A DNA stretch of 64,000 bases from Methylocapsa acidiphila B2. GTDB taxonomy: Bacteria; Pseudomonadota; Alphaproteobacteria; Rhizobiales; Beijerinckiaceae. Numbering within the stretch: the first letter of the stretch is position 1; every line of letters starts with the position of its first letter. The DNA is taken from positions 3,092,504-3,156,503 of the forward strand of contig NZ_KE386496.1 in NCBI RefSeq assembly GCF_000427445.1, read 5' to 3'. Shown here piece by piece: positions 1,991 through 15,389 of this stretch. Position numbers and translations under genes: made by a program. The notes under the pieces are model-generated. The model searched no databases. It saw only the letters and a list, made by a program, of their open reading frames with translations, and was not told the DNA's origin.

Positions 1991-2241
1991 CGGTTCGGTC
2001 GAGGCGAGAGTCTACGATTGGGCCGAGTCCGGTCTCCTTCGCCGGCTCATAGGCGCGAACAAGCCAGGTTGTTCGGTCGAGAAGGCAGGTCCCGTTTCGC
2101 CAACCGACAGGAGATTGCGCCGACGCCTCCGAGACTATATCCTGACCTTGACAATGGCCTCGCGAGACGTCGTTGATTGCTGCGCCGAGCGCGTCCTGCG
2201 CCCCGACGTCCAGGTGTTCGATCCTCGCTCGGGGGAAGGCT

Positions 2242-2985
2242 GTGGCGCAAACAGTCGGCGATCTGACGGCGGCATTTCTCGAATGGTTGGGGACGCGCGC
2301 GGCGTCGACGACGGTGCGGCTGGTCGCGCCCTCGGCCGGGCCTCTTCCCGAAGGCGCGGGCGTCCTTCTCCACCGCGTCAGCCCTCGTGGCGCCGAACGA
2401 AGATGCGGCGAAGCGCAGGCCATCGAGGTTTCGCTTCTGATCGTCGTGAACCATGCCGACGCCCTCGAGGCGGCGACCATCGCCGGCGAACTGGCCTTTG
2501 GCTTGTCCGACGAAATCTGGATCGACGCGGAGGGCGTCGCGCGTCATTTCATCATTGCGCAAGGCGATGATGCGGACACGGCGCGTCGCGCTCTCGGCCT
2601 CCCGGCGTGCCTCGCCACGCTCATTCGCCTCCCGCTGGTCCGCGAACGCCCGCGGCGCGCGGTCAAGCCGGTGCTCGAACCTCTCAGGGTCGAAATGGTC
2701 GAGTTCGGCGCAATGGAAGGCGCGATCATGGGCGAAGTTTCTGGCGTCGATCCACGGCCGGTCATGGACGCGCGCGTCGAAGCCGAGGCCTATGGCCGAG
2801 AGGCGCGAACTGATCGGAACGGCCGCTTCCGGTTGACGGGAGTGCCGGCGCAGGGGACAGTCGCGTTGACGGTCACGGCCAAAGGGCGATCGCGCTCTTT
2901 TTCCGTCAAAGAAAGATCCGGCGTCCTCTTGCGCCTGCCGATAAACGGGGCCGACGAAGAGCCAGTTGAGGGGAGGTCGAAATGA
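2242..2985 (+). CDS. DUF4255 (Pvc16-like) contractile injection system protein
   Basis: First gene of the CIS operon, 247 residues from the GTG at 2242. That start places the sequence AQTVGDLTAAFLEWLG at the N terminus, where DUF4255 proteins begin; an upstream ATG at 2173 would add 23 poorly fitting residues. The N-terminal two thirds match the Pvc16/DUF4255 pattern; in the Photorhabdus virulence cassette and antifeeding prophage this protein caps the sheath and tube. The C-terminal part (FRLTGVPAQGTVALTVTA) looks like a small carboxypeptidase-regulatory-type beta domain. Its stop overlaps the sheath start by four bases (ATGA), so translation is coupled. No strong promoter was found upstream apart from a TTGACA near 2147. 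Confidence 0.75.
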   Translation: MAQTVGDLTAAFLEWLGTRAASTTVRLVAPSAGPLPEGAGVLLHRVSPRGAERRCGEAQAIEVSLLIVVNHADALEAATIAGELAFGLSDEIWIDAEGVARHFIIAQGDDADTARRALGLPACLATLIRLPLVRERPRRAVKPVLEPLRVEMVEFGAMEGAIMGEVSGVDPRPVMDARVEAEAYGREARTDRNGRFRLTGVPAQGTVALTVTAKGRSRSFSVKERSGVLLRLPINGADEEPVEGRSK

Positions 2986-4172
2986 GCCTGAGCTACTCGT
3001 ATCCCGGCATCTACATCGATGAGAAGGATACCGGCGCGCGCCCGATCCAGGGCGTGACGACGACGACCGCCGCCTTCATCGGCCTCGCGCCCAAGGCCGA
3101 CGCCAACCGGCTGAAGGTCAAGCCGGTCAACAGTTTCGGCGAATTCTGCGACGTCTTCGGCGCAACATCCGAGACTCCCAATATCCTCGCCAACGCAGTC
3201 TACGGGTTTTTCGCGAATGGCGGGTCCCGCTGCTATGTGGTGAATCTCGGCGACGACGGTCCGATCGATCCGGCGCTCGAGCTCATCGAGCCGCTCGACG
3301 AGGTCGCGATGGTGGCGGCGCCGGGGCGATCGGATATTGCGTCGACGTCTACGTTGCTGGCCTATTGCGAAAGAGTCGGGGATCGTTTCGCGATCCTCGA
3401 CGCGCCGGGGCCCGATAAGGTCGATCTCGATGCGCTGGTGCGGGTCGGGCAGGAGAAAGGTTCCGCGACGGCGGTAGGGGACGCGCCGGCGGGGGAAGCT
3501 CCGGGCCTCCGGCCGCCGATCTCCCAGCGCGGCTTCGGCGCTCAATATTTTCCCTGGCTGCTCGGCCGCGACGCTCTGAACCCGAGCCGCAGGGACCCGA
3601 TCCGGATGCCGCCCTCCGGCCATGTCGCCGGCATCTATGCCCGGACCGACACGCAGCGGGGGGTCTTCAAGGCGCCGGCGAACGAGATCGTCCGAGGTGC
3701 GACGGGGCTCGCCCAAAGCCTGACGAATTCGGAGCAAGGCAAGCTCAATCAAGCCGGAATCAATTGCATCCGCTATTTCTCGACGCAGGGCATCCTCGTC
3801 TGGGGCGCGCGCACGCTCGCGCCGCAAGGCTCCAACTGGACCTATGTGAATGTGCGCCGTCTCGTCCTTTTCATCGAGCAATCGATCTATCGCTCGACCG
3901 GATGGGTTGTGTTCGAGCCGAACGACAGGCCCCTGTGGAAGTCGCTTCGGCGCGACGTCTCGGCCTTTCTCACGCTTTTATGGCGGAGAGGCGCGCTCAT
4001 GGGCGCGACGGCGGAGCAGGCCTTCTTCGTGAAATGCGACGAGGAGACCAACCGGCCCGAAAATGTCGATCGCGGGATCGTCACGACGGTCATCGGCATA
4101 GCTCCGGTGAAGCCCGCCGAATTCGTGGTATTCGAAATCGGCCAGATGGCGGGGCCTGGAGCCGGGCAATGA
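2982..4172 (+). CDS. Contractile tail sheath protein
   Basis: Sheath subunit of 396 residues. The N terminus YPGIYIDEKDTG and the strand TTTTAAFIGLAPKAD are the signature of T4 gp18/Pvc2-type sheaths; the C-terminal domain (NVRRLVLFIEQSIYRSTGWV and RRDVSAFLTLLWRRGALMG) is the conserved part that forms the interlocked mesh. The sheath contracts and drives the inner tube outward. Only one sheath gene is present, whereas Pvc and Afp clusters carry three, so this particle is of the simpler one-sheath type. It overlaps the DUF4255 gene upstream and is 23 bp from the tube gene downstream. Confidence 0.93.
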   Translation: MSLSYSYPGIYIDEKDTGARPIQGVTTTTAAFIGLAPKADANRLKVKPVNSFGEFCDVFGATSETPNILANAVYGFFANGGSRCYVVNLGDDGPIDPALELIEPLDEVAMVAAPGRSDIASTSTLLAYCERVGDRFAILDAPGPDKVDLDALVRVGQEKGSATAVGDAPAGEAPGLRPPISQRGFGAQYFPWLLGRDALNPSRRDPIRMPPSGHVAGIYARTDTQRGVFKAPANEIVRGATGLAQSLTNSEQGKLNQAGINCIRYFSTQGILVWGARTLAPQGSNWTYVNVRRLVLFIEQSIYRSTGWVVFEPNDRPLWKSLRRDVSAFLTLLWRRGALMGATAEQAFFVKCDEETNRPENVDRGIVTTVIGIAPVKPAEFVVFEIGQMAGPGAGQ

Positions 4173-4195
4173 AACGTCGGACCGGAGATTGAGCG

Positions 4196-4657
4196 ATGGC
4201 AGACGAGCAAGCGAAAGGCGCCGCGGCGACGGCGGCTGTGGATCCCTACCGCAATTTCAATTTTCGGCTGGACATCGGCGGGGTCGCCGAGGCCGCCTTT
4301 TTCTCGGTGCAGGGCATCGCGATGCGGGTGCATCCGATCCGATTTCGCGAGGCCGGCAATGCGCAGATCGTGCGGTCTCTGCCCGGACCCGTCGAATATG
4401 CCGAAGTGACGCTCCGCCATGGCGTCACGCGCTCCACCGGCATGTGGCAATGGATCAGTTCGATCGCCAAGGGCCGGATCGAGCGGCGCAATGTCTCGAT
4501 CCTGTTGCTTGAAACCGATGGCTCCACGGAAGCGATCCGCTGGAACCTCATTAACGCCTGGCCCTGCGAATGGCATGGGCCTTCTCTCGACGGGCTCGGA
4601 CGGGAGATCGCCATCGCGGAACTCAAGCTTGCCTACGACGAGTTGCAGCGCGAGTAG
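4196..4657 (+). CDS. CIS inner tube protein (gp19/Pvc1-like)
   Basis: Tube subunit of 153 residues, the normal length. It begins with NFNFRLDIGGVAEAAFFSV, has the middle segment MWQWISSIAKGRIERRNVSI and ends IAELKLAYDEL, all typical of the Hcp-fold T4 gp19-like tube family. Hexamers stack into the hollow tube that is pushed out by sheath contraction and may carry cargo in its lumen. The start is supported by a GGAG about nine bases upstream. Only one tube gene is present. It lies between the sheath and the linker protein, the standard CIS order. Confidence 0.93.
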   Translation: MADEQAKGAAATAAVDPYRNFNFRLDIGGVAEAAFFSVQGIAMRVHPIRFREAGNAQIVRSLPGPVEYAEVTLRHGVTRSTGMWQWISSIAKGRIERRNVSILLLETDGSTEAIRWNLINAWPCEWHGPSLDGLGREIAIAELKLAYDELQRE

Positions 4658-4661
4658 CGGC

Positions 4662-5684
4662 ATGTCTGCCTGGCTGATCTTCGTTCGCGCCCCGATCGCC
4701 GCCGTCGTGCGGTGGATGCGGCGTCTGCTCGGCCGCGGCGACGCGGCGAGCGCTGCCCGCGCCTCCGGGGAAATTCCGAACGCCGTCATCGAACGGCTCC
4801 GCGAGCGCTATCCCGACGCCCCCCTCCCTTGGCTCGAGATCGTCGCCCGAAATGCGCCGCGCGAAAAGGAGGAAAAGGCGGGCTTCGAAACCGACAAAGG
4901 ACAGCGCGGAGATTTTTCCGCGGCGTCCGCAGCAAAGGCGCCTTTTAAACATGCGCGGGTGGTCGCCGACAGATCCGCATCAAAACAAGATTTCGGCGTG
5001 ACGGACCATGCGAACCTTGGGCCGACGCATCGCGGGACGTCGCCTCGCTTCGTCCTTAAATCAATTGAACGCCTCGAACCGCGTCGACCGTTCGAGAGGT
5101 TGAGGGCGTCGGCAAGCAGCGCCGCCGAGCGGGCAGGAGAGCCGTCGGACGCGGCCCACGGCTGGGACTCCACGCGGCGCGCTCACTCTGCCGCTTCTAG
5201 GCCGATGCCGGTTGATCAACCGCGCCGCGGCGTCGACGACCGCCCCTCCGCATTGTTTGACGCCGGCGCGGCTGTCGGCCCTCCGCATGGGACCATCGGA
5301 GGATCTCGCTTCGCGCAGGAGAGCGCCCCGCGCGCGAGTTCCGGAGCGATTGGGGTGCGTGAACTCCATTGGTCGCCGGGGTTGGGGCGCGCGGCTGAGG
5401 CGGCGGCGCCGTCCCCATTGAGGAGCGCCCGGCCTCGAGCCCCGGTCTCGGATATGCCTCCTCTATCGCCCGTGGATGCGGCGCGAGGGGACAAGCCGCC
5501 GGAGCCGAAACGAGGGATCTTGGAACGCGCGCGCGGCTATGAGTCCGCCGCCAGCTTGTGGTCGGATCGGCCGAGCGGCGATCTTTGGCCGGCGCTTGCC
5601 GAGGAACCCGCCGAGACGGCCGCTGCTCCCCACTCGGATCATGACCGCGGGCGGCGGCTGGCGCGCATCCAAGAGGCCTTGTGA
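4662..5684 (+). CDS. Arg/Pro/Ala-rich CIS-associated protein, Pvc6 position
   Basis: Protein of 340 residues with no recognised domain. I start it at the ATG at 4662, four bases after the tube gene; the open frame extends upstream only because it overlaps the tube gene. The N terminus is amphipathic (AWLIFVRAPIAAVVRWMRRL) followed by RLRERYPDAPLPWLEIVARN. The middle 200 residues are low-complexity and probably disordered. The C terminus carries a short conserved-looking motif, SGDLWPALAEE, then HDRGRRLARIQEAL. Similar short WPxLPE motifs occur in linker proteins of other CIS operons. It lies between tube and tube-initiation genes, which suggests an assembly or adaptor role. Its stop overlaps the next start (TGATG). 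Confidence 0.7.
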   Translation: MSAWLIFVRAPIAAVVRWMRRLLGRGDAASAARASGEIPNAVIERLRERYPDAPLPWLEIVARNAPREKEEKAGFETDKGQRGDFSAASAAKAPFKHARVVADRSASKQDFGVTDHANLGPTHRGTSPRFVLKSIERLEPRRPFERLRASASSAAERAGEPSDAAHGWDSTRRAHSAASRPMPVDQPRRGVDDRPSALFDAGAAVGPPHGTIGGSRFAQESAPRASSGAIGVRELHWSPGLGRAAEAAAPSPLRSARPRAPVSDMPPLSPVDAARGDKPPEPKRGILERARGYESAASLWSDRPSGDLWPALAEEPAETAAAPHSDHDRGRRLARIQEAL

Positions 5685-6538
5685 TGCAGCGGGTTTTGTT
5701 CCTCATTGAGCAGACCGGCGAGCGGATCTCGGCGCTGCTCAACCCGGAGCGGCTCGAATTTACACGACGAAGCGGGTTTCGCGCCGCGTCGCACGCGACC
5801 GGCGCGATCACCGGCGTCGGCCTTTCCGATGATCTCGTCATTGCGACCGGCGGCGGGGCGACGGAACTGACGCTCGACCTTTTGTTCGACGTCGATCTGA
5901 CCGAAGCCTCCATCGGAGAGGGCGTAGGCGCGTCTGCCGCGCTCGACGGGTTTGCGGTTGATTCCAACGGGCAGGGGCTTGGTCTTCAGGCGACCGAGGA
6001 CATCGGGCGTCCGGTCGATGTGCGCGAGCTGACCCGCCCGTTTTGGAACCTTTCGGAGAACTCTTTCGCGCAGGGCCGGCGCGGCGCGCCCCCTCAGGTG
6101 CGGTTCATCTGGGGGCGCTCCTGGAACGTGCCGGGCGTCATCGTCGCGATCGCGGAGCGTTTCGAACGATTCGACGAGGAAGGTCGGCCGCGCCGATCAC
6201 TCCTGCGAATGCGGCTTCGACGCGTCGCCGAGCTCGACGTGGACACCGGCAAGGGCGTCGGAACTGGCTTGCCGAGCCCGAGCACTAGCGTCACTCCTTT
6301 TTTTGAGCCGCCGACGGCTCCAAGCCCAGAACTTCTCGAGGCGGCGGATCGCATCGAGATTTCGACCGATGAAAATGGGCTTCCCAATCTCCGGCTCGAT
6401 CAGCTCGCCGCCGAGGTCTATGGGGATCCATCGTTATGGCGCTATGTCGCCGCCTTCAATGGAATTGAGGATCCTCTGCATCTCACCGGCGGAATGGCGA
6501 TCGCCGTCCCACAGATCGGCGGAAAGGCCTCGACTTGA
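5684..6538 (+). CDS. LysM-containing CIS tube-initiation protein (Pvc7/gp53-like)
   Basis: Protein of 284 residues. The N-terminal domain (LLNPERLEFTRRSGF, later ELTLDLLFDVDLTEAS) is the contractile injection system tube-protein domain; the C-terminal ~50 residues (GLPNLRLDQLAAEVYGDPSL then WRYVAAFNGIEDPLHL) form a LysM-like module. In known CIS this protein bridges the hub and the first tube ring. The ATG at 5684 overlaps the previous stop; a GTG one codon earlier is possible. The stop overlaps the following TTG start. Confidence 0.85.
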   Translation: MQRVLFLIEQTGERISALLNPERLEFTRRSGFRAASHATGAITGVGLSDDLVIATGGGATELTLDLLFDVDLTEASIGEGVGASAALDGFAVDSNGQGLGLQATEDIGRPVDVRELTRPFWNLSENSFAQGRRGAPPQVRFIWGRSWNVPGVIVAIAERFERFDEEGRPRRSLLRMRLRRVAELDVDTGKGVGTGLPSPSTSVTPFFEPPTAPSPELLEAADRIEISTDENGLPNLRLDQLAAEVYGDPSLWRYVAAFNGIEDPLHLTGGMAIAVPQIGGKAST

Positions 6539-8055
6539 CCGCGGTTTCGCTGACCAGGCTCCGTCCGGAGGTGTCGCTTGCGGGCGCGCCGCTCGAGCCG
6601 ACGCTGCATCGCCTTGTCGCCTCGATCGTCATTCGGCAGATCTTCGGCGCGCCGGCCCTGGCGGAAATCGCGATTGAAGCTCCCTTTGAAGGACTGGAAA
6701 ATCGATTGGCCGCCGGAGTGGAACTCATGGTGTCGGTAGGCCCGGGACCTGCGATGTTCGCGGGCCGGATCACTGGCCTCGAGCATGAGTTCGGCGCCGA
6801 CGGACGGCGAGTCCTGCGGGTGCGGGCCCATGACGCCCTTCACGGCTTGCGCGTGAGGCGGCGTTTTCGCGTGGTCGAGGAAGCCTCGGCGGCGAGTCTC
6901 TGGTCAGAAGCGGCGGTGGAGCTCGGCCTCGATTTCGACGCGGTGGAGACCGGACCGACTCGAAGGATCGTCCAGGCTGGGACGAGCGACCTCGCCTGCC
7001 TTGTCGCCGCGGGCCTCGAGGAGGGCCTGCATCCGACGATCAGGGAGGGAGTCTTGCGCCTTGTCTCTCTCGCCGGCTTCGGCGAGCCGATCGATCTCGG
7101 CTGGGGCGAGGCCTTGCTCGCGGCGCGCATCGACGAGGCGGGCGAGCGGGCGGCGCGTTCGAGCCGGGCGGAAGGATGGGACCCTTTTTCGGCGAAGGCA
7201 TATTCCGCATCCGCCGCGCTTTCGCGGCAGGACCAAGAGGTCGAGCTTCGCAGCTTCGGGCTCGGGGCGCTCAACGCCGACGAGGGCGCGCTTTTTGGCG
7301 TCAATCGCGTCGCGAGGTCCGAGGCGCAGATTGCGGCGGACGCCCAGCAGGCGTTCGATTGCAATGCCGCCGCGGAGACTGTGGTCACGGGAACCGCCTG
7401 GGGCGACCCCGCGCTCGGGCCAGGAGTCCGCGTCACGCTGAGCGGGCTCGCGCCGAAAGAGGCCTTGACCGTCGTCCTTGCCCGAACGACTCATAGTTTC
7501 GACGTCGCGACCGGTTATACGACCGAGTTCTCGACCGAACCGCCGCCGCGGAGAGCGCGTGCGGAGACGCCGATCGTCACTCTCGGCCAGGTCGTCGATA
7601 TCCGGGACCCGGATGGCGGCGCCCGCTGCAAAGTGAAGCTTCCGGCCTTCGGCGACGCGACGGTCGGTTATCTTAGCGTTTTGATCGCCGGCGCGGGTCC
7701 AGGAAAGGGCGCAGCCGCGCTTCCCGACGTTGGGGACGAGGTCGTCGCGCTCTTTCCGACCGGGGATCTCGCCGAAGGCCTGATCCTTGGCGGCCTTTAT
7801 GGCGGGGCTCGCCTTCCGCGTGGCGTGACCACGCAGGATCCCCGCGCGGTCGTCCTGGCCTCAGGCGGAGACCAGCGGCTCGTGCTGGGCGGACGCCAGA
7901 AGACATTATCGCTTTCGACCAGTCGCGGCGATACGCTCGCCCTCGGCGGGGCGCAGGGGCAGCTTCTGGTCGCCGGCGACCTGACTATCTCGGCGGTCGG
8001 CGGAACGATCACGATCAAGGCGAACAAAATCAAATTCGAACGGGGCAACGCATGA
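6535..8055 (+). CDS. VgrG-like/gpD spike hub protein (Pvc8-like)
   Basis: Spike hub of 506 residues starting at a TTG that overlaps the previous stop (TTGA). Residues 1-330 correspond to the phage late control gpD/gp27-like barrel (for example VLRVRAHDALHGLRVRRRF). Residues ~345-450 form a gp5-type OB fold (VVDIRDPDGGARCKVKLPAF and PDVGDEVVALFPTGDLAEG). The remainder is a short spike stem, with LVLGGRQKTLSLSTSRGD-type repeats ending KANKIKFERGNA. Trimers connect the tube to the puncturing tip. No extra enzymatic domain is visible, so this is a structural spike rather than an evolved effector-bearing VgrG. Confidence 0.88.
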   Translation: MTAVSLTRLRPEVSLAGAPLEPTLHRLVASIVIRQIFGAPALAEIAIEAPFEGLENRLAAGVELMVSVGPGPAMFAGRITGLEHEFGADGRRVLRVRAHDALHGLRVRRRFRVVEEASAASLWSEAAVELGLDFDAVETGPTRRIVQAGTSDLACLVAAGLEEGLHPTIREGVLRLVSLAGFGEPIDLGWGEALLAARIDEAGERAARSSRAEGWDPFSAKAYSASAALSRQDQEVELRSFGLGALNADEGALFGVNRVARSEAQIAADAQQAFDCNAAAETVVTGTAWGDPALGPGVRVTLSGLAPKEALTVVLARTTHSFDVATGYTTEFSTEPPPRRARAETPIVTLGQVVDIRDPDGGARCKVKLPAFGDATVGYLSVLIAGAGPGKGAAALPDVGDEVVALFPTGDLAEGLILGGLYGGARLPRGVTTQDPRAVVLASGGDQRLVLGGRQKTLSLSTSRGDTLALGGAQGQLLVAGDLTISAVGGTITIKANKIKFERGNA

Positions 8056-8408
8056 CCTATGTCGCGATCGAGACGGCGCAGTGCCATTGTACGCATGGCG
8101 GCACGATGCGGATGGAGCATTCGCAGGACTGGGTCACGATCGACCGGACGCCCATCCTCGTGAAGGGCGATCTCGATCATCGCCCCGTCGTTGGTTGCAG
8201 CGCCGGAGCGGAGCCGGTCGGCGTGGTGCGTTGCCGAACCATCGCCACGGTTGACGACAAGCCCAGCCATTCCGAGTTTCTGACGATCGACGGCAAGGGC
8301 GTCGTGCTTTCGAGCGCCAATGGCGCGACCGATTATAGCAGCGTCAATCTATCTCCATGGTCCATGGCGTCGCCGGGCCAGGACTGGGTCGAGATCGTGG
8401 AGGGATGA
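8052..8408 (+). CDS. Candidate PAAR-like spike tip protein
   Basis: Protein of 118 residues overlapping the spike hub gene by four bases (ATGA). It contains QCHCTHGGTMRMEH near the N terminus, further cysteines (VVGCSAGAEP, VVRCRT) and several histidines that could bind a metal, as at the tip of PAAR cones. The position between the VgrG-like hub and the gp25-like gene is where Pvc10-type tip proteins are encoded. I do not recognise a classical PAAR motif, so the function is inferred mainly from position and size. Confidence 0.5.
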   Translation: MTYVAIETAQCHCTHGGTMRMEHSQDWVTIDRTPILVKGDLDHRPVVGCSAGAEPVGVVRCRTIATVDDKPSHSEFLTIDGKGVVLSSANGATDYSSVNLSPWSMASPGQDWVEIVEG

Positions 8409-8412
8409 GGCG

Positions 8413-8871
8413 ATGGCCGCGTCGGGATGGGCGTTCATGGGGCTGTCGCGTTTCGTCGCTCCGGATCTGGGGGGTGTTCCCGACCGCGGTCCAGCGCTCG
8501 CGCCGACAGGATCGATCGCGCTTGTCTCGGGCGACGACAATGTGCGCCAGTCGATCCTCATTCTTCTTTCCACGCGCCCGGGCGAACGGGTGATGAGGCC
8601 GAACTTTGGTTGCGCCATCCACCGTCTGGTCTTCAGCCCCAATGACCCGACGACGGCGGGGCTCGCCATTCATTATGTCCGCCAGGCCTTGCTGCGCTTC
8701 GAGCCCAGGATCGACATCTTGCGGCTCGACGCGGGTCCGACGTCCGGCTCCGCTGATCGAGCCGACGATGCGGGCGTCACGCTGTTCATCACCCTGGACT
8801 ATTTGGTTCGCGCGACCAGGCGGGCGGAACGGCTCGGGTTCGAGCTCGATTTGAGCGGCGAACGGCCATGA
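8413..8871 (+). CDS. gp25-like baseplate wedge protein (Pvc9-like)
   Basis: Baseplate wedge subunit of 152 residues with the gp25/IraD-type core: VRQSILILLSTRPGERVM, then RPNFGCAIHRLVFSPND. The RPGER motif is almost invariant in this family and links baseplate to sheath. I start at the ATG at 8413, five bases after the previous gene; upstream extension to 8320 would overlap the tip gene. The C terminus contains one further strand (VTLFITLDYLVR). The stop overlaps the next start (ATGA). Confidence 0.92.
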   Translation: MAASGWAFMGLSRFVAPDLGGVPDRGPALAPTGSIALVSGDDNVRQSILILLSTRPGERVMRPNFGCAIHRLVFSPNDPTTAGLAIHYVRQALLRFEPRIDILRLDAGPTSGSADRADDAGVTLFITLDYLVRATRRAERLGFELDLSGERP

Positions 8872-11501
8872 CGATCAAGCTTCCAAATCTCGACGACCGC
8901 AGCTTCGCCGACCTCTTGGGCGAGGCTATCGCTCTCATCGACGAGCGCTGTCCGCAGTGGAATGATCGGACGCCTTCCGATCCGGGCATGACGTTGGTCG
9001 AGGTCTTCGCCTATCTCACCGAGATCCTGATCTACCGCGTGAACCGGATGCCCGAGAAGGCGCATTTCGCTCTTCTCGACCTGCTCGGCGTCGCTCCGCT
9101 GGCTCCTGCGCCGGCCGAAGCGACTGTGACCTTCAGCCGCGCTCAAGTCGACCGTGACGCAGCGCCTTTGACGATTCCGGCTGGAACCCTCGTGACCGAC
9201 CGAGCGGGGACGCTGACGTTTTGCACGCTGGAGGATGCGATTTTGCCCGGTTGGGCGATCCCGGAGCGGCCAGCGCCAAGCGTCGATGCGAAGGCGCTCA
9301 ATGCGGAAAAGGTCGTGGGAGAACTGATTGGGCGAGGCGGCGGCGAGCCAGGCCAGTCCTTCCTCGTTCAACGCGGCCCCATCCTGCGGCGGCCATCCGA
9401 ACCGAATTCTCTTATTGTGGGCGTCGAAGTGCGCGACGGCGATCCGCCCGCGGGCGCCGAGCTTCGCAGTTTCGCCGGGAAGACATTCGCCACATGGCGC
9501 GAGGTGAACGCCCTCGCCGGCTATGGCCCTTCGGATCCCGTATATGTGGTCGATCGGGCGAAAGGCATGATCGTCTTTGGCTCGAGCGACGCGGCGAGCG
9601 ACGGCGCCCGCAGCGCCGGCGCGGCGCCGGGCGCTGGACTCGAGATTCGCGCCTGGTATCTTCGCGGCGGTGGCCGGCAAGGAAATGTCGCGCCGGGGAC
9701 GCTGACCGTGCTCAAGACGCCGATCCGCGGGGTCGAAGCGACCAATCGCGCGCGTGCGTCAGGCGGCGAGGATATGGAGCCAATCGAGCGCGCGCTCGCG
9801 CGGGGGCGGGAGGCCGTGCGTGTGCTGCGCGCCGCTGTGACCGCCCGCGACTTCGAGAATGTCGCCTGCGAAACTCCTGGGATCGCGCGGGCGCGGGCAT
9901 ATGCGCAGCGCGACGTCTGGCGGGCCTTTGGTCGTCCGGGCGTCGTCGACGTTCTGGTCGTGCCGCGCATTGATCCGGCCGTCGCGGCGCAGGGCGTCGA
10001 CTCCGCCACGCTCTCCGCGCATCAGACGAGCGAGCTTCTGGCCAATGTGCGCGACCTCGTCCGCCGCCGCCGCCCGGTCGGCGTGGACGCGCGCGTGGAT
10101 TGGGTTCGCTGCCGGCCGGTCGATATTTCGGCGCGGGTCGTGCTGTCCGCCATCGAGGACCGCGACCTCGTCTCGGCGCGTCTCGCGGGCCGGTTGTATA
10201 AACTTCTCGCTCCGGATGGAGATTGGCCATTCGGGCGGCCCTTGCGGGCGTCCGATGTCTACGAGGCCTTTCTTGCGGAGCCAGGGGTTCGCTACGCCGA
10301 AAATCTCACCTTCCACATCGCCGACGCGCCGTCCTCCGACATCAAGGACATTCATCGCGACCAATGCCAGGAGACGACATTCTATGCCGCCGGCCGGGCC
10401 CTTTACCGTAGCCTCGATGGCGGCGACAGCTGGGCGCCTATCCTGGAGCGGGAGGGCGAGGTCTTCCTCGGCGTGCGGACCGCCGCCATTCTGCCAGGCT
10501 TCGTCGCCGCCTTTTCGCGCCGGCTCAACGGCGAGCAGACCAATTATGTCGTCTATGTCTCGGAAGACGGCGGCGAGAGCTGGATCGACCGGAGGGGACC
10601 GAGCGACGCCGCCCCGGAGGACCGGATTCTGCGCCGGGTCTTCGGATTCGAAATCAGGGACGTCGCCTGGACCGAAGGCTTGGGCGGCGCGCCTGTGCTC
10701 GCCATCGCCGGCAGAGCCGCGTTGCAGCAGATCCGCTTCAGCGAGCGCGTCATGACCGAGATCGTGGCGGTCCGCGGCGCCACCGAGGAGGCCCAAAGGG
10801 ACGACCAGCGCGGCTTCGAGGCGGTTGCTTCGATCCGGCATGTTTCAGGCCTGCGCTTCGTCGCGGTCGCGGCGCGCGAGCGACTCGGAGTCTTTGTCGC
10901 CAGCGGCGTCGGTCCGTTCAGCCTGCTGCCTGGAACGACCGGCAAGAACATCCGGGTTCTCGCTTTCCAGCAGCAGGGGAATGAAACTTTCCTTTGGGCT
11001 GGGCTGTCGGCCGACAAAGGCGAGCCGGGCAAGGGCGCGATGCGCATTGGGATGCGCGTCGACGGCAGCTATGATCCGACTGGGTGGGAAACTTTTGACG
11101 CCAATTGGTCGAGCGGCTCCTGCGAGGCTCTCGACTTTTGGGGCGATTTCGTCGCCGCTGGCTCAAACCGGGGCGGAATTTTGCTGTGGCGGATCGGCAA
11201 GTCGCAAAAATGGAGCGATCCGCCGGCGCTCTCCTGCGGCCTGCCGCTCGTGGATGAACGCCGGAGCCTGGCGCCGGCGTTCGGGGTTGGCGTCGGCCCC
11301 GGAGCTGACGCTGATAGGCCTACAATCCTCTTCGGCGGGGATGGGGGCGCCTTCAGAAGCGAGGATCTCGGCCGCACCTACAAGCCCAATGGCCGCACCG
11401 ACTTCGAGGATCGGGCGCCGCTTCCGCTCAACTGGCTCTTCTGCAGCGGCAAGATTGAGCTCGACGTCGCCGTCGAATCCGCTGGGGAGACTGGAGGATG
11501 A
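8868..11501 (+). CDS. gpJ/gp6-like baseplate protein (Pvc11-like) with Asp-box repeats
   Basis: Large baseplate protein of 877 residues. The N-terminal ~490 residues are baseplate J/gp6-like: LPNLDDRSFADLLGEAIAL, PGMTLVEVFAYLTEILIYR, and later AVTARDFENVACETPGIARA. The C-terminal ~370 residues differ from the phage family and contain three Asp-box motifs, SLDGGDSW (~514), SEDGGESW (~564) and SEDLGRTY (~829), typical of beta-propellers of the BNR/sialidase-like fold. The propeller may contact a receptor or stabilise the particle rim. Overlap of four bases with both neighbours shows a coupled operon. The fusion boundary is approximate. Confidence 0.88.
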   Translation: MTIKLPNLDDRSFADLLGEAIALIDERCPQWNDRTPSDPGMTLVEVFAYLTEILIYRVNRMPEKAHFALLDLLGVAPLAPAPAEATVTFSRAQVDRDAAPLTIPAGTLVTDRAGTLTFCTLEDAILPGWAIPERPAPSVDAKALNAEKVVGELIGRGGGEPGQSFLVQRGPILRRPSEPNSLIVGVEVRDGDPPAGAELRSFAGKTFATWREVNALAGYGPSDPVYVVDRAKGMIVFGSSDAASDGARSAGAAPGAGLEIRAWYLRGGGRQGNVAPGTLTVLKTPIRGVEATNRARASGGEDMEPIERALARGREAVRVLRAAVTARDFENVACETPGIARARAYAQRDVWRAFGRPGVVDVLVVPRIDPAVAAQGVDSATLSAHQTSELLANVRDLVRRRRPVGVDARVDWVRCRPVDISARVVLSAIEDRDLVSARLAGRLYKLLAPDGDWPFGRPLRASDVYEAFLAEPGVRYAENLTFHIADAPSSDIKDIHRDQCQETTFYAAGRALYRSLDGGDSWAPILEREGEVFLGVRTAAILPGFVAAFSRRLNGEQTNYVVYVSEDGGESWIDRRGPSDAAPEDRILRRVFGFEIRDVAWTEGLGGAPVLAIAGRAALQQIRFSERVMTEIVAVRGATEEAQRDDQRGFEAVASIRHVSGLRFVAVAARERLGVFVASGVGPFSLLPGTTGKNIRVLAFQQQGNETFLWAGLSADKGEPGKGAMRIGMRVDGSYDPTGWETFDANWSSGSCEALDFWGDFVAAGSNRGGILLWRIGKSQKWSDPPALSCGLPLVDERRSLAPAFGVGVGPGADADRPTILFGGDGGAFRSEDLGRTYKPNGRTDFEDRAPLPLNWLFCSGKIELDVAVESAGETGG

Positions 11502-12019
11502 GAGCGGCTGAAATCGCGCGGCTTCTGCCCGAGATTTATCAGGATGCGCTCGACGCCAGTCCCGCGCTCTGCACGATCCTGGATATTATGGAGCGCCTGC
11601 ACGCGCCGGACGAGAGGGTCGTCGCCAACATTGACGCGTATTTCGACCCTCGCCGAGCGCCTGACGCCTTCGTCGAAATGATGGCGCGTTGGCTCGCCCT
11701 CGGACCATATCTGGAGCGAGATCCTCTCGGCCAGCGGCGCGCGGCCGTCGGCCCTGCAGCCTTGCGCGATCTCGTGGCTGTCGCGGCGGAACTCGCGCGT
11801 TATCGCGGCACGGCCGACGCGATGATCGCTTTTCTCGAGCGCGCCACTGGCGTGACCGGCTTCACCATCGAGGAAAACCCGCCGGATTCGGCCGGTCGTC
11901 CCCAGCCGTTCCATATCCGGGTGGGCGTCCCGCCGGCAGCGGCCGCGAAAAGGGATCTTGTCAGCCGCATCGTCGCGGGCGAAAGGCCTGCCTGGGTCAC
12001 ATTTGAACTGTGCCCGTAG
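11498..12019 (+). CDS. gpI-like phage tail/CIS baseplate protein (Pvc12-like)
   Basis: Baseplate subunit of 173 residues resembling phage tail protein I: it begins RLLPEIYQDALDASPALCTI, continues HAPDERVVANIDAYFDP and has the LARYRGTADAMIAFLERATG segment common to this family. In Pvc and Afp, the equivalent region is fused into a larger protein (Pvc12); here it is a small separate gene. It overlaps the gpJ-like gene (ATGA). It is the last recognisable particle component: no tape measure, fibre or AAA+ ATPase gene follows. Confidence 0.85.
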   Translation: MRAAEIARLLPEIYQDALDASPALCTILDIMERLHAPDERVVANIDAYFDPRRAPDAFVEMMARWLALGPYLERDPLGQRRAAVGPAALRDLVAVAAELARYRGTADAMIAFLERATGVTGFTIEENPPDSAGRPQPFHIRVGVPPAAAAKRDLVSRIVAGERPAWVTFELCP

Positions 12020-12063: not shown

Positions 12064-12873
12064 ATGCAGAGTTTTCAGATCACTGATCCATCGTCAACCG
12101 CCGCTTTGGCCGACGTCGGAGAGGCGGGGCGTCGCGTGGGGGGCGGCTCGATCACTTTTGTCGTCGAGAATCTGACCAACGCGAACCGGACCGCATCGCT
12201 CTCTATCCTGCCGGAGGTCGAGGCCGATCTTCCTTTGTTCAAATTGGTCGAGGCGGCTCCGACGACGCCCTCCATGCGGAGCGTCGACCTGGCGCCGCGC
12301 CAGGTTCTGAATGTCATCGTCGCGATCAAGGCTCCCCTCGGTCCCGAGCCGCGGCGGGTTATCTTTCGGCTGCGCGCTGCGCTGGAAAGCGATCCAGACA
12401 ATGACGCTGTTGACAGCCGGCCTGTCGCCATTGAAATCAACAGGGCTTCTGCGGCCGAACCGCCGCCGCCAAAAAAGCCGTTTCCGTGGCTAGCGCTCGC
12501 CGCCGGAGCGCTGTTGTTGATAGCAGTTGGCGGTCTCGCGGCCTATGTCCTGAAATCTCGACCAAAGCCGCCGCAGACGATGAGCTTCGATGAGTTCATC
12601 GCCTTTGCGCAAGCCCAGCATGACGCCTTCATCTCGATTCGCGGCAAATTGGACTTCAATGCTTGCAACGGCTCGCAATCCGTCGCCCGGGATCCGACGC
12701 GCGCCGATCTTTACGTCATAACTTATGGCGTCAAGATTGATCCTCCCTGCTTGCCGTTCACGCCAGAAGAGATGAACATGTTCGACAAGCGGAAAGTCGT
12801 ACAAAAGCGGATGGAAAAAATCGTGGCTGCGGCCGATCATGTCAAAATCGACGGAATCGAGCCTACGGAGTAA
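12064..12873 (+). CDS. Single-pass membrane protein A, paralogue of the next gene
   Basis: Protein of 269 residues, 44 bp after the gpI-like gene and probably in the same operon. Residues 1-125 form a beta-rich domain (QSFQITDPSSTAALADVG, GGGSITFVVENLTNANRTAS, FRLRAALESDPDNDAVDSRP). A proline linker leads to one membrane helix (WLALAAGALLLIAVGGLAAY, ~144-163). The last ~100 residues (SFDEFIAFAQAQHDAFISIR, CNGSQSVARDP) match nothing I recognise. With no signal peptide, the N-terminal domain should be cytoplasmic and the C-terminal domain periplasmic. The shared N domain with the next gene and the position suggest a CIS accessory or membrane anchor. No function is established. Confidence 0.75.
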   Translation: MQSFQITDPSSTAALADVGEAGRRVGGGSITFVVENLTNANRTASLSILPEVEADLPLFKLVEAAPTTPSMRSVDLAPRQVLNVIVAIKAPLGPEPRRVIFRLRAALESDPDNDAVDSRPVAIEINRASAAEPPPPKKPFPWLALAAGALLLIAVGGLAAYVLKSRPKPPQTMSFDEFIAFAQAQHDAFISIRGKLDFNACNGSQSVARDPTRADLYVITYGVKIDPPCLPFTPEEMNMFDKRKVVQKRMEKIVAAADHVKIDGIEPTE

Positions 12874-12921
12874 TGAGCGCGATGCGGCCGGTTGCTGCTC
12901 AGCGCGACAGAGGGGATGAAA

Positions 12922-13761
12922 ATGGCCAGCTTCCAAATCAGCGATCCGTCGACGAAGCTTATCCTTACAGATGCGATGGAATCCGGCCGGCCGGTCTCGA
13001 AGGGAACGGTCACCTTCGTCGTCGAAAATTTGACGGGAATGAACCGCACGGCGAGCCTCCAGGTCCAGCCGCAGGACCCTATGGAGATCGCCCTCTATCA
13101 GATCGCCGGGAGCGCGCCGACGAATCCTTCGATCCGCAGCGTGGATTTTGGTCCTCGCGAGGTTCAGAACGTCGAAGTGACGATCACGGCGACGCGCGGC
13201 TCCGCGGCGAAATCCGCTTCGTTCCGTCTCAGGGCCGCGCTCGAGGACGATCCCGACAATGACGCCATCGACAGCCGCCCGATCGCTTTCGACATCCCGG
13301 CCGCGCCGCCGTCGCCGCCGCCCGCAAAGGCGCCGTTCCCGTGGTGGGCGGTGGGCGTCGCAGTCGCGCTCGTCGCCGTGATCGGCGGCGGCGCATGGTA
13401 CGCCTTGCGCGGGCATTCCACGCCGACGCCTCCGCCTCATCCCAATCCACCGCAAATAGCGGGGACATGGATCAATCTCGATCCAAATACGCGGAGCATC
13501 CCGCAACTTACTGTCGCGAATAACCAATTGCATGTTTGGGGTGCCTGCCATCCTACGAACTGCGATTGGGGGGTGACCAATCTGAATTCAGGACCAACGG
13601 CTGGCGTTTATACGGCCAGCTACAATCAAGGCTTTTCAATTAAAAATGTAACCCTGAGCCTTAATGCAGCCGGTCAACTCACCGTTACGACGGCGACGCA
13701 TTTTACGGACAATAGCGGTAGACCGGATTACAGTTCCAGCGATCGATTTAGAGCTCAGTAG
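12922..13761 (+). CDS. Single-pass membrane protein B with CHPTNCDWG-type domain
   Basis: Paralogue of the preceding protein, 279 residues. I start at the ATG at 12922 because the resulting N terminus (MASFQISDPSTK) aligns with MQSFQITDPSST of protein A and AGAGGGG lies seven to twelve bases upstream; in-frame ATGs at 12892 and 12916 are alternatives. The N domain (~1-120) is clearly homologous to protein A (EDDPDNDAIDSRPIAFDIP). One membrane helix follows (WWAVGVAVALVAVIGGGAWY). The C-terminal domain is different: GTWINLDPNTRSIPQL, VWGACHPTNCDWGV and a run of beta strands. Shared base and divergent C terminus suggest modular accessory proteins exposed to the periplasm. Confidence 0.75.
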   Translation: MASFQISDPSTKLILTDAMESGRPVSKGTVTFVVENLTGMNRTASLQVQPQDPMEIALYQIAGSAPTNPSIRSVDFGPREVQNVEVTITATRGSAAKSASFRLRAALEDDPDNDAIDSRPIAFDIPAAPPSPPPAKAPFPWWAVGVAVALVAVIGGGAWYALRGHSTPTPPPHPNPPQIAGTWINLDPNTRSIPQLTVANNQLHVWGACHPTNCDWGVTNLNSGPTAGVYTASYNQGFSIKNVTLSLNAAGQLTVTTATHFTDNSGRPDYSSSDRFRAQ

Positions 13762-13903: not shown

Positions 13904-14413
13904 ATGCGTCCGCTTGTGATTATTCTCATCGTCCTGGGCGCGCTGTCGATCCTCATGCTGATCGGCGGGGAGTTTGCTGCCCCGTCCACCGATCTCCGCT
14001 CGTCTTGGCGCGACAGGATCGAGACAGACGGTCCGCCAAGCTGGACCTCGGTTCTGGGCTTTCTGCTGTCGCCCTTCAGTCCCAAGGTCGCGTTCGAGCC
14101 GTCGCGCAACCGATGCGCGGCGCCGGACGATAAATTCGCGCCGGCGGCTGGGACGCGCTACCGCGTCGCCCATGCGCGGTTGGCGGGAGGCGAGGGCGCG
14201 AAAATTATTTTCAACGGCCGGGAGGCGCGCATGGACCATAAGAATTGGCCGCTCGTCCTTTGCCTCAAAAGCCCGTCCTCGGCTTTGCCCGCGCCGGGCG
14301 ATTGCGAGAATGCGTCTCCGCAACCGAAAGCTTCGCTCGCCATTGGTCCAAAGGGCGGCTGCGTATCGGTTCAGCCCTTCGGCAATCCGCCTGGCGTCGT
14401 GTCCTGGGAGTGA
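13904..14413 (+). CDS. Hypothetical membrane-anchored protein
   Basis: Protein of 169 residues, not recognised. The N terminus is one hydrophobic helix (PLVIILIVLGALSILMLIGG); a second moderately hydrophobic stretch (WTSVLGFLLSPFSP) follows. The rest is polar with four cysteines (RNRCAAPD, LVLCLKS, GDCENA, GGCVSV), which suggests an exported, possibly disulfide-bonded domain. It is 142 bp from the second paralogue; that gap holds nothing I can identify. It is convergent with the next membrane protein. It could belong to the CIS locus, but only proximity supports this. Confidence 0.6.
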   Translation: MRPLVIILIVLGALSILMLIGGEFAAPSTDLRSSWRDRIETDGPPSWTSVLGFLLSPFSPKVAFEPSRNRCAAPDDKFAPAAGTRYRVAHARLAGGEGAKIIFNGREARMDHKNWPLVLCLKSPSSALPAPGDCENASPQPKASLAIGPKGGCVSVQPFGNPPGVVSWE

Positions 14414-14434: not shown

Positions 14435-15112
14435 TTAGGCCGGGACAAGCCCGCGCAAGAAGCGCACAAGCGAGAAGACGCCGCCTATCAGAAGAAGGAC
14501 CATCCAGATCGTTGCGACGATCCCGAAGATGATCGCGGCGATCGCGTCGACGATCGAGACGAGCGGATTTGGGACGAATCCGTGGAGAAAGCTCAAGCCG
14601 AAGGTGAAAGCCAGCGACGTCGCCGTTAGCACGACGAGTCCCTTGTTGCTGAAGATCGTCGGAGCGGCGAGGATGATCATGACCACTCCCGCGATCTTGA
14701 TCGTCATGATCATGCCTAGGATCGTGCGGCTGGCGTCCGTGTCGAAGATTCCGTAGAGCGCCATGTAGACGATCGTGCCGAATGGGACGGCCAGAAACAA
14801 CGCAATCATCACGTTCAGCAGAGCGATCGCCGCCGTCACCAAGGCGATCCCGAACACGATCCCGAGGAGCGATGTGATCAGGGCGGCGAGCCATTGCAAC
14901 CGCCCGCTAATGGCGCCGAGCCCGACGACCTCGAGGCCCAGCATCACATAACTGTAGATCACGAGAATGTCGAAGAAACAGAGGGCGGCAAGCCCGAGCC
15001 CCGGCCGCGCGTCGCCTTGCGCGACGCCGAGAGCCAAGGCTGACCCGCCGCTGACCGAGGCGCCAATGATCAGACAAAATATGCCGAGAAGAAGAAGCGG
15101 TGTCTTGATCAT
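14435..15112 (-). CDS. Multi-pass membrane protein of unknown function
   Basis: Polytopic inner membrane protein of 225 residues with about six hydrophobic segments, among them LLLLGIFCLIIGASVSGGSA, LAALITSLLGIVFGIALVTA, TIKIAGVVMIILAAPTIF and AIIFGIVATIWMVLLLIGGV. I start at the ATG at 15112 (MIKTPLLLLG); an upstream frame to 15151 adds a poorly fitting polar extension. No catalytic or transport motif is recognised. It is convergent with the preceding gene, 22 bp apart. It may be part of the CIS accessory region or unrelated. Confidence 0.65.
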   Translation of the reverse strand: MIKTPLLLLGIFCLIIGASVSGGSALALGVAQGDARPGLGLAALCFFDILVIYSYVMLGLEVVGLGAISGRLQWLAALITSLLGIVFGIALVTAAIALLNVMIALFLAVPFGTIVYMALYGIFDTDASRTILGMIMTIKIAGVVMIILAAPTIFSNKGLVVLTATSLAFTFGLSFLHGFVPNPLVSIVDAIAAIIFGIVATIWMVLLLIGGVFSLVRFLRGLVPA

Positions 15113-15389
15113 GTCCCGGAACCTGTGGGGGCCGCAGCCTCGCGGAGCCAATGAGCGGGCGACTAGCCCGCATGCGTTTGCAAATGAGGCAAACGGATCA
15201 TGTTCGTGATTTGATGTCGACGCAATCCAAAATCACAAATACGAGCGATGTCGCCGCTCTGGCGCCAAAGCAGGCCCGACGGCTCTGGCGGTTCTTATCA
15301 GTTCCCGCGGCCTCTATCTGGCTACGCGACGATAATCGAGGCCTGGGCGAGATTTGACGTCGTGACGCAGCGTCGGGCCGGGCCATGAA

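What the first reader, a model, noticed from the sequence alone, without database searches (positions are those of the whole stretch)
12064..13761. Tandem paralogues with shared N domain and membrane helix but different periplasmic domains
Both proteins open with an SFQI(T/S)DPS-type beta domain, share the EDDPDNDA-like motif, have a proline linker and one membrane helix, then diverge completely. The second ends in a domain with GTWINLDPNTRS and CHPTNCDWG. Lying directly behind the CIS genes, they could dock the particle to the inner membrane from the cytoplasm and present variable periplasmic modules. I know of no described role for this arrangement.
Basis: inference. Interest (0 to 1): 0.65.

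Follow-up and report, generated by a model that had tools for sequence, protein, structure and literature searches.

The report
Membrane proteins paired with injection machines
Two neighbouring genes make membrane proteins that share an inner (cytoplasmic) domain but carry different outer domains; relatives in several bacterial phyla sit beside one kind of phage-tail-like injection machine and may tie that machine to the state of the cell envelope.

Summary
In detail: window 12064-12873 and 12922-13761 encode tandem paralogues with an Ig-like N domain (55% identical), PFPW linker, one membrane helix and unrelated C domains. The N domain marks one clade of contractile injection systems (CIS). 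In a genome scan that ignores neighbours, 20 of 21 loci have it next behind the baseplate gene Cis12, three after a 0.5-0.6 kb gap; the other contig begins at the gene. All 16 close Cis12 relatives found are followed by it (6 not seeds). C domains vary: PASTA, Kelch, an avidin-like barrel, others. The nearest solved machine is the Streptomyces coelicolor cytoplasmic CIS, where the membrane adaptor CisA has the same position, so 'no described role' is wrong. A second counterpart is Sco4256-4258, single-TM proteins reported as effectors; a Streptomyces-like pair fitting that description is Ig-Ig-TM-X and remotely similar. I favour a CisA-like receptor/adaptor (0.5) over effector cargo (0.3). New here: a family across three phyla, module swapping (the window's barrel recurs on a kinase-FHA-Ig-Ig-TM protein in a distant Chloroflexota CIS), and co-occurrence with a Cis11 extension.

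The parts
12064..12873 (+). Paralogue 1 (269 aa): Ig-like N domain, PFPW linker, one TM helix, C domain unlike the other members
   Evidence: no Pfam or PHROG match, NCBIfam only a hit far below cut-off
12064..12438 (+). Ig-like N domain of paralogue 1 (residues 1-125)
   Evidence: AF2 blocks pLDDT 80-98; VIA rows to Ig/PapD-like folds, Z 9-10
12487..12558 (+). TM helix of paralogue 1 (residues 142-165 in the model)
12571..12870 (+). C domain of paralogue 1, two Cys; no match among the C parts of the 32 family members compared
   Evidence: model poor here, pLDDT blocks about 35-75
12922..13761 (+). Paralogue 2 (279 aa from ATG 12922): Ig-like N domain, PFPWW linker, TM, beta-barrel C domain
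12922..13296 (+). Ig-like N domain of paralogue 2 (residues 1-125)
   Evidence: AF2 blocks pLDDT 91-98
13342..13407 (+). TM helix of paralogue 2 (residues about 141-162)
13462..13758 (+). Eight-stranded beta-barrel C module with GTW and CHPTNCDWG motifs
   Evidence: pLDDT blocks 82-93; streptavidin 4jnj_C Z 9.9, rmsd 3.1, 95 aligned; same module in L008, L019 and at the end of a kinase-type protein, L087
2173..2985 (+). First gene of the CIS operon (only CarboxypepD_reg matched; cap role guessed from position)
2982..4172 (+). Sheath (Cis2)
   Evidence: Pfam; best PDB match 8bky E 1.6e-89, a sequence also present in 9gtp
4196..4657 (+). Inner tube (gp19 family)
5681..6538 (+). CIS tube protein; LysM-like end seen by eye only
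   Evidence: PF19266
6535..8055 (+). VgrG-like spike
8320..8871 (+). gp25 baseplate wedge (Cis9)
8868..11501 (+). Baseplate J (Cis11), 877 aa, with long C-terminal extension
   Evidence: S. coelicolor baseplate chain 9gtp_1K E 6.7e-48
10350..11498 (+). Cis11 extension (residues 495-877, weak BNR/Asp-box match; propeller is a guess)
   Evidence: fold not modelled
11498..12019 (+). Tail_P2_I baseplate gene (Cis12), the gene directly upstream of the pair
   Evidence: profile of the family finds 9gtp_E E 3.5e-12
13904..14413 (+). Conserved small protein with one N-terminal TM, follows the pair
   Evidence: relatives in 17 locus records, 15 distinct loci, one of them weak
14435..15151 (-). Conserved protein with six hydrophobic segments next to this CIS clade
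   Evidence: relatives in 16 locus records, 15 distinct loci

Best explanation
The pair are bitopic inner-membrane receptor/adaptors for a cytoplasmic-type CIS. The Ig-like N domain stays in the cytoplasm and binds the baseplate, most plausibly the C-terminal extension of Cis11; one helix crosses the membrane; the C domain samples the periplasm or cell wall. Binding of a ligand, or envelope damage, would recruit or license the particle to fire at the producer's own membrane. Two paralogues give two inputs. Shown: CIS linkage, shared N with different C, recurrence of the same C modules in different settings, sequence signs of topology. Inferred: cytoplasmic mode of this CIS, binding to the particle, the Cis11 contact, sensing and firing.
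For: N-domain gene next behind Cis12 in 20 of 21 loci, three after a 0.5-0.6 kb gap. 26 of 28 matches in 21 whole genomes lie at CIS loci. All 16 Cis12 relatives with E below 1e-50 are followed by it, 6 of them not profile seeds. CisA lies just downstream of the baseplate genes in S. coelicolor (passages), and is N-in/C-out and needed for firing (sections 7 and 9). The window's Cis11 and the Cis12 profile find only the S. coelicolor baseplate 9GTP among solved CIS chains. A profile of two CisA-like C domains finds nothing in the N-domain loci. Cys: 7 of 4207 residues before the helix, 83 of 6541 after. C modules recognised are PASTA, Kelch and an avidin-like barrel. Kinase-FHA-Ig-Ig-TM-X proteins behind Cis12 in distant Chloroflexota CIS look like receptors, and one ends in the window's barrel (28% identity, E 9e-14). 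Precedent: in the thylakoid CIS a Cis11 C-terminal extension contacts Cis13, which has a TM helix (passages).
Against: No interaction was tested (two structure jobs, both single chains). Proteins of the same plan, Sco4256-4258, are reported as effectors: the triple mutant has mostly empty tubes and no nisin-induced death. The Cis11 extension and the N domain belong to one clade (100/100), so their co-occurrence counts as one event. Flanking charge is only mildly asymmetric (+1.97 before, +0.44 after the helix). One N-domain gene (L056) has no recognised CIS gene within 1.5 kb, and one fragmented genome, G438, has the N domain but no Cis12 match. More distant Cis12 relatives mostly lack it: of 26 such Chloroflexota loci looked at, one had an N-profile match in its 1.5-kb flank, and none of 3 Actinomycetota ones.
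Confidence: 0.5

Rival explanations
1. The pair are effectors of the Sco4256-4258 kind: the Ig-like N domain is a loading or packing module and the protein is carried in the tube and released on firing.
For: Casu 2023 section 11: three such proteins, single TM, highly similar N termini, ricin-type C domains in two, toxic in E. coli, triple mutant tubes about 85% empty against about 97% filled in wild type. A Streptomyces-like pair of that description (L128) is Ig-Ig-TM-X with ChW or ricin lectin ends. Its Ig1 matches the kinase-type Ig1 (hhalign probability 99, E 1e-18), which matches the window's N domain (probability 95, E 3.7e-8); directly probability 62, E 7.6e-5.
Against: Different position: the Streptomyces-like pair lies beside the sheath gene on the other strand, these lie behind Cis12 where CisA lies. 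No toxin enzyme was recognised among the C modules scanned, although the Kelch one also scores above cut-off for an epimerase family. Relatives carry a whole kinase and FHA domain or a Kelch propeller, unlikely tube cargo (inference).
Confidence: 0.3
2. The anchor is the neighbouring conserved multi-TM protein (14435-15151), as proposed for the archaeal T6SS, and the pair only sense the envelope or regulate the system.
For: Relatives of the six-segment protein in 15 distinct loci. Hbor_38620, six TM helices with a cytoplasmic domain, is a putative anchor of haloarchaeal T6SS (passages, PMC11566945); no sequence comparison was made.
Against: The gene is on the opposite strand in the window, lies upstream of the sheath in Paracoccus and Cereibacter (L006, L012, L014), and was not found in the Chloroflexota loci searched, several of them short.
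Confidence: 0.12
3. They are tail-fibre replacements: particle-bound parts that act after release, the hydrophobic helix inserting in a target membrane.
For: Tail fibres usually lie directly behind the baseplate genes (stated in PMC12237407).
Against: A single mid-protein helix followed by PASTA and paired Cys fits an inner-membrane protein better; no fibre-like component was seen in the S. coelicolor particle.
Confidence: 0.05

Closest known systems
CisA (SCO4242), Streptomyces coelicolor cytoplasmic CIS (PMC12237407: abstract, sections 7 and 9, passages)
   Same: Gene just downstream of the baseplate genes; bitopic; extracytoplasmic C domain proposed to sense stress; its machine is the nearest solved relative (9GTP).
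   Different: CisA has a largely unstructured N terminus, here a folded Ig-like domain; CisA-like C domains were not found in these loci (proxies used); here often two tandem copies with varied C modules.
Sco4256-4258, CIS effectors of S. coelicolor (PMC10066040: section 11 and passages)
   Same: Several copies in one cluster, single TM, similar N termini, differing C domains; remote similarity of the Ig-like domain, mainly through the kinase type.
   Different: The Streptomyces-like pair compared has two Ig domains, lies beside the sheath gene on the other strand, and coexists with a CisA-like gene.
Cis13 of the thylakoid-anchored CIS (PMC8894136: passages)
   Same: Baseplate-binding N domain plus a membrane helix; contacts a Cis11 C-terminal extension.
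   Different: Fibre-like trimer with a C-terminal helix; no variable outer domain mentioned in the passages; no CIS chain matched the N-domain profile.
Roseiflexus CIS (PMC12998442: passages)
   Same: Chloroflexota CIS of the lineage that includes Streptomyces; distant Chloroflexota loci here carry Ig-TM-X proteins near Cis12, one with the window's barrel.
   Different: Those have kinase and FHA domains before two Ig domains. The paper reports no close cisA homologue, and its main text has no occurrence of 'kinase'. That my loci are Roseiflexus was not checked.

Membership tests
CisA membrane adaptor | Gene directly behind the baseplate genes | tested here: met
   CisA position from passages
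CisA membrane adaptor | Bitopic, N terminus in cytoplasm, C terminus outside | tested here: inconclusive
   one TM; Cys and PASTA distribution agree; no reporter assay possible
CisA membrane adaptor | Largely unstructured N-terminal region | tested here: not met
   folded Ig-like domain, pLDDT blocks 80-98
CisA membrane adaptor | Conserved C-terminal domain | tested here: inconclusive
   profile of two CisA-like C domains (L115, L125; never compared with CisA itself) finds none in the N-domain loci
Sco4256-4258 CIS effectors | Single TM, shared N terminus, differing C domains | tested here: met
Sco4256-4258 CIS effectors | Homologous N terminus | tested here: inconclusive
   direct hhalign probability 62, E 7.6e-5; stronger through the kinase type; compared with a presumed relative, L128, not with Sco4256-4258 themselves
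Sco4256-4258 CIS effectors | Needed for a filled tube and for cell death | not testable with these tools
   needs mutants and cryo-ET
Thylakoid CIS Cis13 | Sequence relation to Cis13 | tested here: inconclusive
   profile search of PDB sequences found no CIS chain up to E 10; remote homology not excluded
CIS related to the S. coelicolor cytoplasmic CIS | Cis11 and Cis12 closest to S. coelicolor among solved CIS | tested here: met
CIS related to the S. coelicolor cytoplasmic CIS | Particles act in the producer's cytoplasm | not testable with these tools
   needs cryo-ET

The most novel reading that the evidence does not exclude
CIS of this wider group are governed by one superfamily of envelope receptors (cytoplasmic Ig-like domain, with or without kinase and FHA, one TM, exchangeable outer sensor) that docks to the baseplate and decides when the machine fires. 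The reported Streptomyces effectors Sco4256-4258 would be members of it, acting partly as receptors, and the Cis11 extension of this clade would be the Ig domain's docking site.
Probability: 0.3. Interest if true: 0.85.

Novelty: new variant of a known kind. Interest (0 to 1): 0.62.

Why it matters
How free cytoplasmic injection particles find and fire at a membrane is open for most CIS; in the papers seen here it is addressed for Streptomyces (CisA), thylakoid CIS and an archaeal T6SS. This family offers a candidate answer for a CIS clade found in Alphaproteobacteria, Chloroflexota, Actinomycetota and some Gammaproteobacteria. Its kinase-type cousins offer one for distant Chloroflexota CIS, a group in which a recent study of Roseiflexus found no close cisA homologue. 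Exchangeable outer domains suggest that different species wire the same machine to different envelope signals, which can be tested in laboratory Caulobacter.

Tried and rejected
Named-family searches of the pair: Pfam gave only hits below cut-off, PHROGs and NCBIfam likewise nothing convincing. Phage records hold no N-domain match at E 0.01; plasmids hold one record, in Paracoccus. N domain against PDB sequences: nothing credible. Foldseek and VIA rows for the N domain are generic Ig/PapD-like folds and say nothing about function. The barrel module is not widespread where looked for: 1 of 151 Chloroflexota genomes (G603, locus L126, not resolved further: one search printed no frame for it), one copy in the window's genome, none in plasmids; whether G666, which holds one, was in that sample is not shown. 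The C domain of paralogue 1 was modelled poorly and remains unidentified. Linking Ig2 of the kinase type to the window's N domain: probability 21, dropped. Paper searches combining CIS terms with PASTA, Ig-like and kinase, Caulobacter, Alphaproteobacteria or Chloroflexi returned 0 papers each; they cover only the held open-licence library. PMC13314943 was seen in search listings only. That G666 is a Roseiflexus strain is a guess from my recall of a genome length, unchecked.

Full report
Observation. Two adjacent genes on the + strand, 12064-12873 and 12922-13761, directly follow a CIS operon. Every motif in the finding is present. The parts before the membrane helix are 55% identical (E 3e-46); the parts after it show no match at E 1e-3. 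The two copies are the only N domains found in this genome. AlphaFold2 gives both N domains as an Ig-like sandwich at high confidence, paralogue 2's C domain as an eight-stranded barrel (pLDDT blocks 82-93), and paralogue 1's C domain at low confidence. In VIA-align the barrel's best row is a streptavidin monomer, Z 9.9, rmsd 3.1 over 95 residues. I read this as an avidin-like arrangement, not as homology.

Is it a CIS family? The genome-contig scan with an N-domain profile does not use neighbours, though it needs one of two short motifs. It matched 90 stretches, of which 21 encode relatives. In 20 of these 21 loci the N-domain gene comes next behind the Cis12 (Tail_P2_I) gene of a CIS operon, with a 0.5-0.6 kb gap in the three Ktedonobacteraceae loci (L022, L025, L027); in L023 the contig begins just before the gene. 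Organisms: Pseudochelatococcus, Frigidibacter, a Bauldia MAG, five Caulobacter, Cereibacter, two Paracoccus, Polymorphobacter, an unassigned alphaproteobacterial MAG, two gammaproteobacterial MAGs, five Chloroflexota, one Pseudonocardiales MAG; a Paracoccus plasmid adds another. Over the 21 whole genomes there are 28 matches: 26 at a CIS locus, one undetermined (L023's genome) and one, L056, with no recognised CIS gene within 1.5 kb. The family is rare: 2 of 99 genomes of the window's family and 2 of 385 of its class, own genome included. The second genome of the class sample, G438, is fragmented and carries the same sequence as L023; it gave no Cis12 match.

Reverse test. A Cis12 profile (A5) found relatives with E below 1e-50, a line drawn after seeing a gap down to about 1e-22, in 4 of 251 Chloroflexota genomes, 2 of 246 Actinomycetota, 7 of 75 in the Caulobacter genus and 2 of 198 in the Cereibacter family, plus the window's genome, the only one of 385 in its class at E 1e-10. 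All 16 are followed by an N-domain gene. Ten are profile or scan seeds, the window included; six are not (G616, G522, G884, G1009, G1004, G1141). The weaker relatives differ: of 41 Chloroflexota places 30 gave loci; besides the 4 close ones, 1 of 26 had an N-profile match in its flank (L071, E 7e-6), and 0 of 3 Actinomycetota ones. A Cis12 tree of 46 rows (duplicate loci left out beforehand) puts the 25 N-domain rows on one side of a branch with support 100/100. So the linkage is tight but is one inheritance.

Anatomy across the family. Of 496 pairs among 32 proteins, 474 match before the helix and only 85 after it; the C parts fall into clusters of 21, 4, 4, 2 and 1. Pfam was run on four members of the cluster of 21: PASTA above cut-off in three, below it in L021. 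One member of the cluster of 2 (L027) is Kelch, scoring above cut-off also for the N-acetylneuraminate epimerase family; L022 of the Ktedonobacteria cluster has no match. One cluster of 4 is the barrel type (one member, L019's first protein, is mainly linker). Paralogue 1 of the window stands alone. Cysteine: 7 of 4207 residues before the helix, 83 of 6541 after it; the Fisher P of 2e-11 overstates the case because the sequences are related. Net charge is +1.97 in the 15 residues before and +0.44 after. These signs favour N-in/C-out, which remains a prediction.

Cis11 extension. The window's Cis11 has about 380 residues after its core, with a weak BNR/Asp-box match. Of 23 other distinct N-domain CIS with this region in the fetched DNA, 22 match the extension; L015 has a tail of similar length without a match. 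Of 20 CIS taken as lacking the N-domain gene (17 Chloroflexota, 3 Actinomycetota), 0 match, with 29-54 residues after the core. One of the 20, L097, has weak N-profile matches (E 9e-7 and 2e-4), so the split is not quite clean. Because both traits belong to one clade, this names a candidate partner and does not test it. In the thylakoid CIS a Cis11 C-terminal extension contacts the membrane-anchored Cis13 (PMC8894136, passages).

Related arrangements. I fetched 18 of the more distant Chloroflexota CIS loci. An Ig1 profile, built from four of these loci, matches proteins in 12 of the 18: downstream of and near Cis12 in ten, upstream in L088, 6.7 kb downstream in L105. In L087, L093 and L101 Pfam confirms kinase and FHA domains in front of the Ig-like region, the TM and a variable end; L094, L095 and L098 look alike by start, length and helix. 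These genes follow Cis12 directly except in L087, where one unrelated gene intervenes. No such protein was found in L090, L091, L092, L096, L102 or L106, some of them short pieces. L087's first protein ends in the window's barrel module (28% identity, E 9e-14; 19 invariant columns in four). L097 has tandem Ig-TM-X proteins about 1.1 kb behind Cis12. The kinase-type Ig1 and the window's N domain match at hhalign probability 95, E 3.7e-8.

The known counterparts. The window's Cis11 and the Cis12 profile find only one solved CIS, 9GTP, the S. coelicolor baseplate; the sheath's best match, 8bky, is a sequence also in 9gtp. In S. coelicolor, CisA lies just downstream of the baseplate genes, is bitopic with a cytoplasmic N terminus and is required for firing (PMC12237407, sections 7 and 9 and passages). 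In two Actinomycetota loci (L115, L125) the gene behind Cis12 encodes a zinc ribbon (below cut-off in L125), a disordered-looking stretch, a TM and, in L125, an F5/8C-type match below cut-off; these look CisA-like but were not compared with CisA. The L125 genome carries, beside the sheath gene on the other strand, a tandem pair, 83% identical over 294 residues, Ig-Ig-TM with ChW in one and a ricin lectin in the other. This fits the published description of Sco4256-4258, reported as effectors (PMC10066040, section 11). Its Ig1 matches the kinase-type Ig1 at E 1e-18 and the window's N domain at E 7.6e-5, probability 62.

Judgement. Position, absence of a CisA-like C domain, binding-type outer modules and kinase-bearing cousins favour a receptor/adaptor. 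The published effector phenotype of proteins with the same plan is the strongest counter-evidence. I put adaptor/receptor at 0.5 and effector at 0.3. With its folded N domain it does not meet CisA's described features; it may work like CisA.

Noticed in passing
window 10350-11498: Baseplate J protein carries a long C-terminal extension with weak BNR/Asp-box similarity, matched only in N-domain-clade CIS among the loci compared.
   Followed up: partly
window 13904-14413 and 14435-15151: A small protein with one N-terminal TM and a protein with six hydrophobic segments are conserved neighbours of this CIS clade.
   Followed up: partly
L087 4852-14000: Distant Chloroflexota CIS followed by four reading frames that match the Ig1 profile, the first two with kinase, FHA and one TM.
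   Followed up: partly
L056 1297-1923: An N-domain gene (208 aa) without a recognised C module and with no recognised CIS gene within 1.5 kb in the Anaerolineae genome.
   Followed up: no
window about 4659-5684: Proline-rich reading frame between the tube and CIS_tube genes, no family match; a similar-sized proline-rich gene lies there in Paracoccus.
   Followed up: no
window 2173-12019: None of the ten operon reading frames scanned matched an AAA+ ATPase or a tape-measure family; the rest of the genome was not searched for them.
   Followed up: no
L006 (NZ_CP067227.1): A CIS of this clade, with an N-domain protein annotated as PASTA-containing, sits on a 67-kb Paracoccus plasmid.
   Followed up: no
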